IMG/VR virus record: IMGVR_UViG_3300002143_000235
Span: 186,001 to 250,000 of that record
Strand: one strand, 5' to 3'
From: a virus
DNA length: 64,000 bases
Under the pieces are notes generated by a model. It saw only the letters and a list, made by a program, of their open reading frames with translations, had not been told where the DNA came from and searched no databases. Position numbers and translations under genes: made by a program. Below, piece by piece: positions 4,515 through 56,872 of this stretch (the first letter of the stretch is position 1; every line of letters begins with the position of its first letter).

Positions 4515-6050
4515 TTAATAATGCTTTTTAACTTCTAAAAGAAATTCTATGTACTGTTGGCATACTTCTCTCATTGTTGTACCTGGTTCAAATCCAAACA
4601 TTGTATAAAATTCAGGCATAAGTGTTTCAGTATCGTAATGTTTCAACTGTATCTTCCACATTTCAATAGAAAAATCCATTGGATTTTTTATACTAGCTCT
4701 TGTTGTTGGACAAACAAATGGATAAATATATGGTACACGATGATTTTGACCCTTGTAACTTACAACAAGTCCTGAAGGATTATTATCTGTACCAAGTGCA
4801 AAGAAATCACGCGCATCTAATACCTCCATTGCACTATTTCCAGATGTGATAGATAATCGACCCAATACTTTTATAGCTGGATAACACGACATGAATAAGG
4901 ATTCAACCATATCCATTGTTCTGCCTGTAAAAATATCATCATCATATAGATAGACTTCATTAAATTCATTAGCTATCTTAATTGTTTGTTCATGTAGTGC
5001 TGGTGTGCCAGGTCTATTATTATAACCTAATTTACGCTGTCCAAATGCATCATATACACGAGATATAGAAATCTTATGCGGATGATCACAATATTCATCT
5101 AAAACAACACACTTATCTAAAATGTGTTCAAGTGGAACGTAATCATTTAGTTTATATGTATTTGCACTTTCATTTAACCAAACTGCTGAGAATGATTTAT
5201 TTAAAAGATTAATAACATCATTATCACGTTCAGTTATTCTATTTGCATGTTTATTAGTTAAACTAACACGTAATTGAACTTGATCAGCAAGTGTGTGTTT
5301 AAATCCATTCTTTCTAATTTCAGTAGATGAAATTATATTTTTTGTATCTTCAGCAACGTATACATTTTTAAGATTTTCGTATATACCAATACGATCACTA
5401 TATCCAGGTCTACCAGCAATAACCGTTCCATATTTATCATCACCTTTATAGTACATAAAAGCTTGCGCAAATCGTGCATTATCAGCACCCCAAACCATAA
5501 AGATTGTGATATCTTCAGGTTGTTGATACCATTTATTTATGTATTGTCGTAGTCTATATGCAACAGTTGTAAAATTAACTGCACCTGGTGCAAATACACC
5601 TTCCCATGGATCAATTGCAAGCCATTTATAATCACGAATAAGTGACGTAGCATATTGTATACGTTGACCAATAGGAATCCATTGATCACCAGTTTTTTGT
5701 TTGATGTATTCGTCATGTCCTGGTGACAAATATCCACCCAATACATGGTAACCACTCTCAGTCAATTTTTTCTTAGCTGATTCCATCATATCGATATGTC
5801 CTTGATGCATTGGACAATGTGCACCAGTCGACAAAAGAATACATCGTTTTTTTTTGATAGTATCTAATGTACCTTGTGCTTCGTTATGTGATAAGAATTG
5901 AATAGGTGTACATGGAATATCAGTATGAGCACGATAGTTGATATTCCATTGATTTGTGTCTTCAAAATAACCGGCACTATCTAAAAGTGTCTGATCTGGA
6001 AAATCCTTATAAAAAGGTTCCATTGCTAGTTTGTGTTGATTGAATTGCAT
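4515..6050 (-). CDS. NMNAT-like nucleotidyltransferase fused to phosphoribosyltransferase-like domain, 511 aa
   Basis: Two domains are visible. Residues about 66-255 form a HIGH-type nucleotidyltransferase: LLSTGAHCPMHQGHIDMM holds the H-x-GH motif (about 82-85), VWGADNARF fits the nucleotide-binding GxD loop (about 187-195), and IISSTEIRKNG (about 239-249) is the ISSTxIR motif of NMN/NaMN adenylyltransferases. Residues about 310-450 contain VYLYDDDIFTGRTMDM (about 366-381), matching the PRPP loop of type I phosphoribosyltransferases (hydrophobics, two acids, then TGxT). Inference: it makes an NAD-type dinucleotide and handles a ribose-phosphate substrate in one polypeptide. The gene overlaps by one base with the tRNA-binding protein gene upstream. 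The fusion is uncommon; the PRTase part could have lost activity or bind PRPP/nucleotide only for regulation. Confidence 0.75.
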   Translation of the reverse strand: MQFNQHKLAMEPFYKDFPDQTLLDSAGYFEDTNQWNINYRAHTDIPCTPIQFLSHNEAQGTLDTIKKKRCILLSTGAHCPMHQGHIDMMESAKKKLTESGYHVLGGYLSPGHDEYIKQKTGDQWIPIGQRIQYATSLIRDYKWLAIDPWEGVFAPGAVNFTTVAYRLRQYINKWYQQPEDITIFMVWGADNARFAQAFMYYKGDDKYGTVIAGRPGYSDRIGIYENLKNVYVAEDTKNIISSTEIRKNGFKHTLADQVQLRVSLTNKHANRITERDNDVINLLNKSFSAVWLNESANTYKLNDYVPLEHILDKCVVLDEYCDHPHKISISRVYDAFGQRKLGYNNRPGTPALHEQTIKIANEFNEVYLYDDDIFTGRTMDMVESLFMSCYPAIKVLGRLSITSGNSAMEVLDARDFFALGTDNNPSGLVVSYKGQNHRVPYIYPFVCPTTRASIKNPMDFSIEMWKIQLKHYDTETLMPEFYTMFGFEPGTTMREVCQQYIEFLLEVKKHY

Positions 6051-46240: not shown

Positions 46241-47668
46241 TTAAGCTGTCATAGCAGCTTTTACATCTTCGTAAGTCGTTATTGTTCGAATTACACCATT
46301 AAAAAATCGACTCTTTAACAAATCTTCTTTTTCTACGGTATGTAACTCATTCAAATCTTTTTCAGAAAGTGTAACAATCTGATCATTGATCCGAAGTGTA
46401 TGTAAAATTCCTTTCTTAGATGCTTTACCTTTTGAAGTAATAGGATCTTTGTATACATCTATTTGTTTACCATCAACAATTGCAAAACTAGCCTTAATTG
46501 CAAACTTTAATGTATCACGGTTAAAAGATTGAAGAATACCACCACCAGATCCAAAGATAAAGTTATCAAGTGACCAACCAGCAGCTGTCAATTGTTCAAG
46601 AATTGTTTCCATTGATTTTACAGAAATTCCATCACCTTGAAGCAATTTAAGTTTTGGATTAATTGTTTTAAATCCTTTTTCATTAATAATAAATCCAAAT
46701 TTTTCAGCAAGAATCTCAAGACACATAAGAAGTACAGTTACTGGATCTCCTGAATCAGGACGAATAACAAATGTTCCAGGTCTTTCAAGAATCATTTCAC
46801 GAATGTCTTTCTCATCACTTAAAAAATGACAAACGTTTGCAATGTCATACGTATCTGATACCAATGATAGTGGTACGTTTTCGTAAATGGTTCCTTTTCC
46901 GTGTTTCTTGATAATTTGACGGTATGTTTCAATCTCATTGTCACGACCACGAACAGTCATAACCATGTGCTCAGATGCAGGTACTGAGAATCCACACATT
47001 GGTGCACCATAGTAATTCTGAAGCATTCTAATTCCAGCAATTGTATCAGATCCAGAAAATGAAAGAAGATGTGCAGCTCCTCCCAACCATGCTTGCTCCT
47101 CAGAAGCAACACCTCGGTAACCGAAGTCATGAAGCATGAAGTCTGTGTTTGCTGTGTCTCCAGAAATATCGTAATACTTGTTCAAAATACGTTTACCATA
47201 CATTGAATTTGTTGCAATTGTAATTGGATACCAAAGTTTCATCAAAAGTGTTTCAACCCAGTTAACTAACCAAACACATTTTTCATCAGTTGATCTAATT
47301 TTGAAAAGCATGTTCTTTGTTGGAATGACCATACCTTCATCAACTGAAAGAATCTCAATTGGAAGGAACCCGTTGTAACGTTCTAAAATGTAACGCCATC
47401 CTGCTTCGTTGAATACATTTTCTATACCGAAGTGTTCATTGTAGAATGCAACAGCTTCTTGAATCTTTTCTTCAGTTACTTGTTGACCAACAAGATACGA
47501 TTCCATGTAATATTGTAGTCCGAAGAATACAGTCTCAGAAAATTCTCCACCGCGTGATTCGCAGTAAGATTCCATATATGTGAGACCTTCAGGCAACATT
47601 GCGTGATGTGATGCCTTGTAGCTGTCCGTAGCCAGCATAATGTTCCAAAAACTTTGAAAGTGTTTCAT
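46241..47668 (-). CDS. nadV: nicotinamide phosphoribosyltransferase (NAMPT/NadV), 475 aa
   Basis: Joins nicotinamide to PRPP to make NMN, the first step of NAD+ salvage. Family landmarks: MLATDSYKASHHAMLPEG (11-28), MLHDFGYRGVAS (about 178-189) with the substrate-binding Asp, VPASEHMVM (about 229-237) with the catalytic His, FVIRPDSGDPV (300-310), LLQGDGIS (342-349) and FGSGGGILQ (372-380). Length is normal for the family. Phage NAMPT together with an NMN adenylyltransferase forms the pathway known as NARP2, shown to restore NAD+ after depletion by NADase defences. It sits alone between a terminator and small genes. Confidence 0.95.
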   Translation of the reverse strand: MKHFQSFWNIMLATDSYKASHHAMLPEGLTYMESYCESRGGEFSETVFFGLQYYMESYLVGQQVTEEKIQEAVAFYNEHFGIENVFNEAGWRYILERYNGFLPIEILSVDEGMVIPTKNMLFKIRSTDEKCVWLVNWVETLLMKLWYPITIATNSMYGKRILNKYYDISGDTANTDFMLHDFGYRGVASEEQAWLGGAAHLLSFSGSDTIAGIRMLQNYYGAPMCGFSVPASEHMVMTVRGRDNEIETYRQIIKKHGKGTIYENVPLSLVSDTYDIANVCHFLSDEKDIREMILERPGTFVIRPDSGDPVTVLLMCLEILAEKFGFIINEKGFKTINPKLKLLQGDGISVKSMETILEQLTAAGWSLDNFIFGSGGGILQSFNRDTLKFAIKASFAIVDGKQIDVYKDPITSKGKASKKGILHTLRINDQIVTLSEKDLNELHTVEKEDLLKSRFFNGVIRTITTYEDVKAAMTA

Positions 47669-52741: not shown

Positions 52742-54133
52742 TTAGATATAATAATTTTTTAGTCTGCTCAAGTAATCTTCATCATGTTGAAGTTGTGTTA
52801 AACCTTCTTTAGATTGAATTGCTTCACGAATTACCGTAGATGACACATGACGATTATATGTAATATCTAAACACTTAACATTTGCTAACAAAAGATTAAT
52901 ATGAAAAATATTACCAGGACGATCAAAATATATAAATGATGTTTTTCTCCATTTCACATTAAATAATGTAGCCTGGTTGTATGTAGCATGTTCATCTACA
53001 TGTTCATCATTTAAGAATCGATTGATTGTATCACCACCCATCATGTAACGAAGTATGTGTTGATCTGTAAAATCTGAATTCTCTGTAAATGATTTGTAAG
53101 ATGAACTGTAATAACCATCAGAGTCAATAATTACATCATAACCATAAGAATGAATCAACATAATGCGTTTGAGCATATTGTCAACAGCAATGTCTCTATT
53201 CTTTCCTGTATCTCTATTTGATAACGAGATTGCAAGTACAACTTTAGTTTCAGGAAATTCTTCTTCAATTTTGTAGATCATTTCCAAGTGTCCTGGATGA
53301 ATTGGATTAAAACTTCCTTTAAAAACTGTAATGTCTTTGTTCGAACGAATCAGATCATTCAATCGTGTCAATTTTGCATTGGTAGCAAATACAACACTTG
53401 ACGCTAATAATGAATCAGATTGACTTCGTTGCATCATTGTTGCAAGTGTTTTTCTAGCTAATTGATCTTTTACATCTACACGCACATCATCGATGAAGCG
53501 ATTAGTAAATTTCTTATGGTCTCCACGTGTTGCAATGATCTCCAATCCAATACCAGCAATAATTTCCAACTGGTGTCTACGAACTACATAAACTGGAATA
53601 GTATAGTGAAAGTAATACAATTGGTCATTAATAATGTCATAGTAACCAAACCATCCATGACTACAAACATCTTTTGTATTCGCTATTTGAATACTGTTGA
53701 CAAGAATGTAATCAACTGGTAATGTACCAGACTTACGGATTTCTTCAATTTGATCCAAGATATCAATCTCTTTAGAACGAAGCTCAACAGTTTTTTCATA
53801 ATCAGATGCTTTGACAGCATTCAACTTTTCAGTACGAATACTATTCAAAGCACTATTAATTTCTTGACTATTTGGAAGTAATTCATTGAAATGATAATTC
53901 AACATGTTCTGACAAACCTCTGGTGATACTGCACGTACATCCTTATGTTTGTACTTTGCTTGAGCGTATTCCCAACTATTTGGTGATTCTGAATAGTAGA
54001 CAAGTTTTGATGCCGTATTTGGAAACTGACAAAGTGTATTGTAGACTGGTGAACCACCACCAACTTCAATGATGATACCATAAGATCCGTTAGATCGTAT
54101 TTCGTTGATTATTTTTTCGTGAATGTCATTCAT
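52742..54133 (-). CDS. CinA-like / UVR-like / NMNAT-like three-part protein, 463 aa
   Basis: C-terminal part (about 265-445): TVFKGSFNPIHPGHLEMIYK with the GSFNPxHxGH motif (273-282), MGGDTINRF (about 365-373) and HVSSTVIREAI (429-439), the hallmark ISSTxxR-type end of NMN/NaMN adenylyltransferases. N-terminal part (about 15-65): IIIEVGGGSPVYNTLCQFP followed by the Y-x-E-x-P-x-S strand, resembling the C-terminal CinA/PncC (NMN deamidase) fold. Between them, LNAVKASDYEKTVELRSKEI (about 104-123) looks like a UVR helical hairpin. With NAMPT it would complete NAD+ salvage. The CinA part may lack activity. Confidence 0.78.
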   Translation of the reverse strand: MNDIHEKIINEIRSNGSYGIIIEVGGGSPVYNTLCQFPNTASKLVYYSESPNSWEYAQAKYKHKDVRAVSPEVCQNMLNYHFNELLPNSQEINSALNSIRTEKLNAVKASDYEKTVELRSKEIDILDQIEEIRKSGTLPVDYILVNSIQIANTKDVCSHGWFGYYDIINDQLYYFHYTIPVYVVRRHQLEIIAGIGLEIIATRGDHKKFTNRFIDDVRVDVKDQLARKTLATMMQRSQSDSLLASSVVFATNAKLTRLNDLIRSNKDITVFKGSFNPIHPGHLEMIYKIEEEFPETKVVLAISLSNRDTGKNRDIAVDNMLKRIMLIHSYGYDVIIDSDGYYSSSYKSFTENSDFTDQHILRYMMGGDTINRFLNDEHVDEHATYNQATLFNVKWRKTSFIYFDRPGNIFHINLLLANVKCLDITYNRHVSSTVIREAIQSKEGLTQLQHDEDYLSRLKNYYI

Positions 54134-55306: not shown

Positions 55307-55461
55307 CAAAATTATTTTTAATGGTAAAATTATTTACACACATACACACATATACACTATGTGCTTATAATACATATGTGGCACAAAAATGTGCAGTTTT
55401 TTCTTCAGCCTACTGTATAAAACATCTTAACAATGTAATAAACTTTTAAGTTTTGAAATGA

Positions 55462-55469
55462 TATAAATA
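55462..55469 (+). promoter_or_regulatory. T4-late-like box TATAAATA
   Basis: TATAAATA, two bases before the ATG of the DNA polymerase fragment. Identical to the T4 late -10 element; the other virion-gene boxes here read ATATATAA. Confidence 0.4.
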
Positions 55470-55471
55470 GT

Positions 55472-56872
55472 ATGAACAATCATTTCGACAACTTGGTATT
55501 GGATCGTAGTAAGGATGGATTGACCCCAAACGAGGTTGATTATCTTGACACACTTTCAGATGAAGAAATCCAGGCACTGATCGGTGAATGCAACCGAAAC
55601 TACAACTATTATAATGCTGTTCAAACAGGATTAAAACTTATCTTGAACTCTATTTATGGAGCTTTTGGTAATGAATTCTTTGTTTGTTCAACCGTTGACA
55701 TTGCTGGTGGAATTACAGCAATGTGTCGTGATACCATTCGATTTATGGATACACTCAATGAATCTTATTGGTATGATTATTGGCATGAAGATCAGAATCT
55801 TCATGCACATTTAGGAATTAAAGATGTGAATCCAATTGACAATCGTTGGAAATCACGACCTACAGTCAACCAACCATTTGTTGATATTGAAGAACATGAA
55901 ATTAAAGAGTTGTTGAATGGACAAGACATCAACGAACTAGTTATTGAAGGTCTCTTCCAACGAAGAGTATCTGTTTCAAATTATGTGGATACCGATTCAT
56001 TATTTGTTTGTTTTGAACCAGCAATGCAAAGTTGTAACTGGGAAGGAAGCCCACAAGAATTTATTGAGAAAGTTGCTAAGTATAGACTTGAACCATTATT
56101 CAAGAAAAAACTTCAAGGATATGCAAGAAAATACAATGTTGATAATATACAGGATTTTGAACTTGAAAATATTAATGAATCAGTTTTATTTGTTGGTAAA
56201 AAAATGTACATCAAGCATACAATATGGGAAGATGAATCACAATATGAAAGATTGAAAAATATTGTACCTAAAGGTGTAGCATTGATCAAGAAAGGTACAC
56301 CTAAGTTTGCACGTGATAAGATCATGGATATTATCTTGTATATCTTTGATCATGCTGATTCATACAACATTAAAGATATGCTTAAGTTTGTGCGTGATCT
56401 TCGTAAAGAATTTGAGTTAACTAATATCGATGACATTTGTCCAAGTGCTAATATTAAAGATATTTGGACTCAAGGAAAAATAATGGTTCTTGATAAGAAA
56501 ACTGGTGAAAATATTATGATTGATGGACCAGGTGTTGTATCAGATAAAGAAGAATTGATATTCGCTAAAGGTACATACTGGACAAGAAAAGCTGCAGGAC
56601 TTTATAATCACCTCTTGCACAAGCATCCAGATCTTCAAAATCTTTATCCATTTATAACTGATGGAACAAAAGTAAAAATTTATCCTACATCACATGAGTT
56701 GAATAATAAATTTTGTTACCAATTAGGATTGTATCCAAATGAATTTGCACCACCTGTTGATTATGCAGAGCTTTTTGAAAAAACTGTTACAGATCAGGTG
56801 AATGTATATGTGAAAGCTCTTGGACTTCCAGAACTTAATAAAAGGCTTGCCGTAATTGTTTCATTATTTTAA
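55472..56872 (+). CDS. family B DNA polymerase, C-terminal (palm/thumb) part only, 466 aa
   Basis: Contains motif B GLKLILNSIYGAFGNEF (K55, N59, Y62-G63), motif C YVDTDSLFV (DTDS 173-176) and KKMYIKH (about 246-252, the K-K-x-Y block), then thumb sequence and a C-terminal RLAVIVSLF like the sliding-clamp peptide of T4 gp43. The exonuclease domain and motif A are missing; nothing on the + strand upstream encodes them, so this is the second half of a split polymerase. About 50 extra residues lie between motifs B and C relative to T4 gp43. The first 45 residues (LTPNEVDYLDTLSDEEIQAL) resemble a linker before the fingers helix. The N-terminal half must be elsewhere in the genome. Confidence 0.85.
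   Translation: MNNHFDNLVLDRSKDGLTPNEVDYLDTLSDEEIQALIGECNRNYNYYNAVQTGLKLILNSIYGAFGNEFFVCSTVDIAGGITAMCRDTIRFMDTLNESYWYDYWHEDQNLHAHLGIKDVNPIDNRWKSRPTVNQPFVDIEEHEIKELLNGQDINELVIEGLFQRRVSVSNYVDTDSLFVCFEPAMQSCNWEGSPQEFIEKVAKYRLEPLFKKKLQGYARKYNVDNIQDFELENINESVLFVGKKMYIKHTIWEDESQYERLKNIVPKGVALIKKGTPKFARDKIMDIILYIFDHADSYNIKDMLKFVRDLRKEFELTNIDDICPSANIKDIWTQGKIMVLDKKTGENIMIDGPGVVSDKEELIFAKGTYWTRKAAGLYNHLLHKHPDLQNLYPFITDGTKVKIYPTSHELNNKFCYQLGLYPNEFAPPVDYAELFEKTVTDQVNVYVKALGLPELNKRLAVIVSLF

What the first reader, a model, noticed from the sequence alone, without database searches (positions are those of the whole stretch)
55472..56872. Split family B DNA polymerase: only the C-terminal half is here
The gene begins just before motif B and lacks the exonuclease domain and motif A; the upstream DNA is a divergent promoter region. 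Split gp43A/gp43B polymerases are known in some T4-like phages (for example Aeromonas phages), so the other half should be elsewhere. A ~50-aa insertion between motifs B and C is also unusual.
Basis: partly seen in the sequence, partly recalled or inferred. Interest (0 to 1): 0.7.

Follow-up and report, generated by a model that had tools for sequence, protein, structure and literature searches.

The report
DNA polymerase in two distant genes
This giant phage encodes its main DNA-copying enzyme as two separate half-proteins whose genes lie about 151,000 bases apart, cut at the tip of the enzyme's 'fingers'; the split is real, shared by many related huge phages, and resembles the split polymerase already known from some Aeromonas phages.

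Summary
ORF 55472-56872 (+) is the C-terminal part of a T4-like family B DNA polymerase: it starts just before motif B and lacks the exonuclease and motif A. The predicted partner exists in the same 313,708-base virus record: a 495-aa ORF at G000:C1 89002-90489 (+), outside the window and 150,982 bases away, with Exo I-III and motif A. On the intact T4-like profile phrog_262 the halves cover positions 100-509 and 497-839, so nothing between them is missing. The break lies at the tip of the fingers, near RB69 gp43 residue 511. Catalytic residues are shared between the two proteins, so neither should polymerise alone. No second family A, B or C polymerase, intron or intein was found in the record, which may be incomplete. 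Relatives show the same split (PAU, pT24, MA9V-1, Lak, many IMG/VR phages), with halves mostly 0.8-5 kb apart, but about 90-280 kb apart in the huge-phage clade of this virus. Aeromonas gp43A/gp43B is an independent split at the same place (AU test p < 1e-5). Some relatives split the C-half again with a split intein. Verdict: new variant of a known kind; reassembly is inferred, not shown.

The parts
55472..56872 (+). C-terminal half of a T4-like family B DNA polymerase (gp43B-like): P-side fingers helix, rest of palm, thumb; 466 aa. Its partner, the N-terminal half, is outside the window at G000:C1 89002-90489 (+) (L001:478-1965).
   Evidence: Pfam PF00136 and phrog_1918 matches; partner found
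55634..55672 (+). Motif B K55-N67 (KLILNSIYGAFGN); K55 corresponds to RB69 K560
   Evidence: alignment A1 invariant columns; sequence match to RB69/T4 gp43
55841..55960 (+). ~40-aa insertion (residues ~124-163) between motifs B and C relative to the nearest relatives
55982..55999 (+). Motif C Y171-S176 (YVDTDS), catalytic D173 and D175; uninterrupted here, but the split-intein site in LR756500, Lak, L014 and L018
56198..56209 (+). KKMY motif (K243-Y246), conserved K243 and K244
   Evidence: alignment A1
56474..56533 (+). ~20-aa insertion in the thumb-side region (residues 335-354)
55310..55471 (.). Divergent intergenic region upstream of the C-half; no polymerase coding sequence, intron or intein trace

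Best explanation
The window gene is one of two genes that together encode a single T4-like family B replicative polymerase. The N-half (495 aa, 151 kb away) carries the N-terminal domain, the 3'-5' exonuclease, the first part of the palm with catalytic D397 (motif A), and one fingers helix with R466 and K470. The C-half (466 aa) carries the other fingers helix with K55, the rest of the palm with D173 and D175, and the thumb. The chain break falls in the exposed turn at the tip of the fingers hairpin. The two proteins most likely associate without splicing, through the antiparallel fingers helices and the palm, into a heterodimer that works like gp43. Shown: both genes, their complementarity, the break position, conservation of all catalytic residues, and the same split in many relatives. 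Inferred: association and activity of the complex.
For: The N-half is in the same record. The two together cover phrog_262 at 100-509 and 497-839 with no gap. The N-half model (pLDDT 80) aligns over its full length to RB69 gp43 residues 4-511, Z 30, and ends in a single helix 454-494; C-half residues 25-31 align to T4/RB69 527-536. Catalytic and dNTP-binding residues are invariant in both family alignments (A1: K55, D173, D175, K244; A2: D98, E100, D196, D303, D397, R466, K470). The same split at the same site occurs in PAU, pT24, MA9V-1 and dozens of IMG/VR phages. Both halves group with the same huge phages. Precedent: the halves of Aeromonas phage 25 gp43 co-purify and have polymerase activity (Petrov 2010, as reported in PMC2988022).
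Against: No biochemistry was possible. The C-half model was poor (pLDDT 47), so the interface was not modelled. The record is 313.7 kb while nearest relatives are 634-735 kb, so an undetected second polymerase is possible.
Confidence: 0.9

Rival explanations
1. The C-half is a degenerate leftover or duplicate, and an intact polymerase elsewhere does the work.
For: The record is a linear, possibly partial 313.7-kb contig, and relatives are twice as large.
Against: All catalytic motifs are intact and the ORF is uninterrupted. The matching N-half ends where this one begins. No other family A, B or C polymerase was found in the record. The split is conserved in many relatives.
Confidence: 0.04
2. 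The halves are joined after transcription or translation, by trans-splicing introns or a split intein, into one full-length chain.
For: Related huge phages carry a split intein in the C-half at motif C; the MIJ3 PolB has a split intein (PMC6892783).
Against: The N-half ends in a plain fingers helix with no IntN, and the next ORF starts 1 bp after its stop. The C-half begins with no IntC motif. No Intein_splicing match in the record and no group I or II intron match near either half. Both ends align as ordinary polymerase sequence in relatives.
Confidence: 0.03
3. Assembly error or misjoined contig created the apparent split.
For: The source appears to be a metagenomic virus record.
Against: A second record (L009) carries an identical, closed N-half. 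The same break occurs in isolate phages PAU, pT24 and MA9V-1 and in several other huge-phage records.
Confidence: 0.01
4. The halves have separate jobs, e.g. the N-half as a free-standing exonuclease and the C-half as a DNA-binding or regulatory protein.
For: Long separation allows independent expression.
Against: Polymerase active-site residues on both halves stay invariant across relatives, which is not expected if polymerisation were lost.
Confidence: 0.02

Closest known systems
Split gp43A/gp43B of T4-related Aeromonas phages (phage 25, 44RR, Aes007; Petrov, Ratnayaka and Karam 2010)
   Same: T4-like family B polymerase cut at the same place, the fingertip between motif A and motif B (Aes007 gp43A 498 aa, gp43B 391 aa).
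   Different: There the halves are adjacent, separated in Aes007 by a putative homing endonuclease gene. Here they are 151 kb apart with no endonuclease. The tree places Aes007 with T4-like phages, and a common origin of the split is rejected (p 7e-6 and 3.5e-6).
Split polymerases of Bacteroidota-associated jumbo phages and relatives (PAU gp105/gp110, pT24 gp165/gp168, MA9V-1 135/138, IMG/VR relatives L019-L088); families phrog_2062 and phrog_1918
   Same: Homologous halves, same break; a single origin is not rejected.
   Different: Halves lie 0.8-5 kb apart on one strand, in the IMG/VR relatives examined with ribonucleotide reductase and/or clamp-like genes between.
Huge-phage clade LR745206, LR756501-LR756504 (634-735 kb)
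   Same: Nearest relatives of both halves; halves unlinked by about 100 kb or more.
   Different: Opposite strands there, same strand here; LR756501 C-half is enlarged to 566 aa.
Three-piece polymerase with split intein (LR756500, Lak-B5/C1, L014, L018; compare MIJ3)
   Same: LR756500, Lak, L014 and L018 have the same N-half/C-half break.
   Different: Their C-half is further divided at motif C by a split intein; the window C-half is not. MIJ3 was taken from the paper only.

Membership tests
T4-like family B DNA polymerase (gp43; phrog_262) | All of the exonuclease, palm, fingers and thumb coding sequence present | tested here: met
   N-half covers phrog_262 100-509, C-half 497-839 of 856
T4-like family B DNA polymerase (gp43; phrog_262) | Exo I/II/III acidic residues and motifs A, B, C | tested here: met
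   D98/E100, D196, D303, D397 in the N-half; K55, D173, D175 in the C-half; invariant in A1 and A2
T4-like family B DNA polymerase (gp43; phrog_262) | gp43 fold | tested here: inconclusive
   N-half met (Z 30 to RB69 gp43); C-half model too poor to judge (pLDDT 47)
T4-like family B DNA polymerase (gp43; phrog_262) | Single polypeptide | tested here: not met
   Two ORFs 150,982 bases apart
Split two-subunit polymerase (gp43A/gp43B type) | Two complementary ORFs, break between motif A and motif B | tested here: met
Split two-subunit polymerase (gp43A/gp43B type) | Halves adjacent, with intercistronic insertion or homing endonuclease | tested here: not met
   151 kb apart; no endonuclease identified next to either half
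Split two-subunit polymerase (gp43A/gp43B type) | Halves associate and are active | not testable with these tools
   needs co-expression and assay
Split-intein (fractured) polymerase | IntN at the end of one half, IntC at the start of the other | tested here: not met
   No Intein_splicing match in the record; both ends read as polymerase sequence

The most novel reading that the evidence does not exclude
In this clade of huge phages the replicative polymerase is a fixed, obligate two-subunit enzyme whose halves come from unlinked genes under separate control, so that holoenzyme assembly, or the ratio of free exonuclease half to complete polymerase, is itself regulated during infection.
Probability: 0.15. 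Interest if true: 0.65.

Novelty: new variant of a known kind. Interest (0 to 1): 0.42.

Why it matters
Split family B polymerases have been described where the halves are neighbours. Here, and in relatives with the largest known phage genomes, the halves have moved to unlinked loci and persist. The same fingertip site was cut independently in Aeromonas phages and in this lineage, which suggests it is a natural breakpoint that the enzyme tolerates. Annotation by gene name alone would wrongly score such phages as carrying a truncated polymerase, or two polymerases. The natural split pairs are also a ready test of how a polymerase assembles across its own active site.

Tried and rejected
C-half relatives in viral contigs by direct pattern search: no matches; they were reached through the N-half instead. 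Group I/II intron, intein and homing-endonuclease remnants around either half: none found (only sub-threshold Rfam noise). Other replicative polymerases in the record: PF00476 and PF07733 gave no match, PF03104 rang only at the N-half. One shared split origin with Aeromonas phages: rejected. C-half structure prediction from 16 sequences: unusable (pLDDT 47), so no interface analysis. Promoter-like sites around the C-half: number not clearly beyond shuffles (15 against 10.6, sd 3.4), so not used.

Full report
Observation. The window is bases 186001-250000 of a 313,708-base virus record. ORF 55472-56872 (+, 466 aa) matches Pfam DNA_pol_B from position 136 on, the C-half family phrog_1918 over nearly its whole length (E 3e-48) and the intact T4-like family phrog_262 in its C-terminal part. 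Motif B starts at residue 55 and motif C at residue 171. Only five codons lie between the upstream in-frame stop and the ATG (open frame 471 aa), and the upstream region is a divergent intergenic stretch.

The other half. A family search of the same record gave DNA_pol_B matches at only two loci: this ORF and G000:C1 90025-90270. The latter lies in a 495-aa ORF, G000:C1 89002-90489 (L001:478-1965), which matches the N-half family phrog_2062 (E 7e-73) and is the only DNA_pol_B_exo1 match in the record. With phrog_262 the N-half covers 100-509 and the C-half 497-839. The genes are on the same strand, 150,982 bases apart.

Where the break is. The N-half model (pLDDT 80) aligns over its whole length to RB69 gp43 residues 4-511 (Z about 30, rmsd 4-5 A) and ends in one helix, 454-494. 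Residues 25-31 of the C-half align to T4/RB69 527-536. The break is thus at the tip of the fingers hairpin. From the alignments, the residues corresponding to RB69 D411, R482 and K486 are in the N-half (D397, R466, K470) and those corresponding to K560, D621 and D623 are in the C-half (K55, D173, D175). The roles of these RB69 residues are from general knowledge of family B polymerases. Both metal-binding and dNTP-binding sites therefore draw on both chains, and neither half should polymerise alone.

Relatives. The nearest relatives of both halves are uncultured phages of 634-735 kb (N-half 40-45%, C-half 32-39% identity). In these records the halves lie far apart and on opposite strands: LR745206 N 232.8k (+), C 130.6k (-); LR756502 N 253.9k (+), C 120.5k (-); LR756504 N 255.9k (+), C 538.0k (-); LR756501 N 90.3k (-), C 709.5k (+). 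IMG/VR relatives L014 and L018 also have them about 90-100 kb apart. In more distant relatives (L019-L088) the halves, where both are in reach, are 0.8-5 kb apart on one strand. Where examined, the genes between are NrdB, NrdA and a clamp-like protein, with a RecA-like gene downstream of the C-half in L019; L019 has only the clamp-like gene between. The clamp assignment rests on similarity to a G000 ORF that weakly matches phrog_223. PAU, pT24 and MA9V-1 have separate halves 1.2-2.4 kb apart. Flavobacterium phage MaF61 has one intact 994-aa polymerase. Lak-B5 has the pieces within about 12 kb, while Lak-C1 has them about 227 kb apart in record coordinates.

Origins. Trees of each half place the window virus with the same huge phages. 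All split rows except Aeromonas Aes007 forming one clade is not rejected (p 0.25 for N, 0.08 for C), whereas adding Aes007 is rejected (p 7e-6 and 3.5e-6). The Aeromonas split is therefore independent yet at the same site. MaF61 is a long branch, so one split plus a later re-fusion cannot be told from an early intact branch.

No splicing. The N-half stop is followed 1 bp later by the next ORF. No intron family matched near either half, and no Intein_splicing domain was found in the record. In contrast, LR756500, Lak-B5, Lak-C1 and the contigs of L014 and L018 have the C-half in two genes, the first ending after motif C in an N-intein and the second starting with a C-intein (Pfam support). In the contig of L018 an ORF between them matches only phrog_22677, of unknown function.

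Mechanism and confidence. The best explanation is a two-subunit gp43-like polymerase assembled without covalent joining. Presence, complementarity, break position and conservation are shown. Association and activity are inferred from the Aeromonas phage 25 precedent, whose halves co-purify and are active (Petrov 2010, cited in PMC2988022). The C-half could not be modelled well.

Novelty. Half-families already exist in PHROGs, and deposited annotations of pT24 and MA9V-1 (and a note in PAU) already name both halves as DNA polymerase. The split itself is known. In seven searches of open-access papers I found no description of halves separated by tens to hundreds of kilobases, but most subscription journals were not searchable. 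I file it as a new variant of a known kind.

Noticed in passing
L104, L101 (LR756500); L105, L103 (Lak-B5); L106, L102 (Lak-C1); L112, L109; L111, L110: In these huge phages the polymerase C-half is itself two genes with a split intein at motif C (IntN after ...DTDS, IntC ending ...ANDILVHN|S), giving a three-gene polymerase; ORFs of unknown family lie between.
   Followed up: partly
window 46241-47668 (-), 52742-54133 (-), 4515-6050 (-): NAMPT/NAPRTase-like gene plus two cytidylyltransferase-like genes: a probable phage NAD salvage set.
   Followed up: no
L091:3827-5527 (LR756501): C-half enlarged to 566 aa, with an extra N-terminal stretch, a 160-residue motif B-C spacing and an acidic C-terminal tail.
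   Followed up: no
L118:1456-2217 (G000:C1 ~125.8 kb, -): Sliding-clamp-like protein (phrog_223, E 4e-4), unlinked to both polymerase halves; in relatives such as L019 the clamp-like gene sits between the halves.
   Followed up: partly
L100:10971-12722 (G000:C1 92970-94721, -): T4 Gp23-like major capsid protein about 2.5 kb from the N-half.
   Followed up: no
L100:9016-9450: 144-aa ORF near the N-half with a weak match, below the curated cut-off, to Tad5, a Thoeris inhibitor.
   Followed up: no
window 55381-55394: Short hairpin with a T run in the divergent region 78 bases before the C-half start; not beyond chance in the scan.
   Followed up: no
L074:7751-9666: A gene between the polymerase halves seems to carry an intein, next to an HNH-like ORF (read by eye only).
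   Followed up: no
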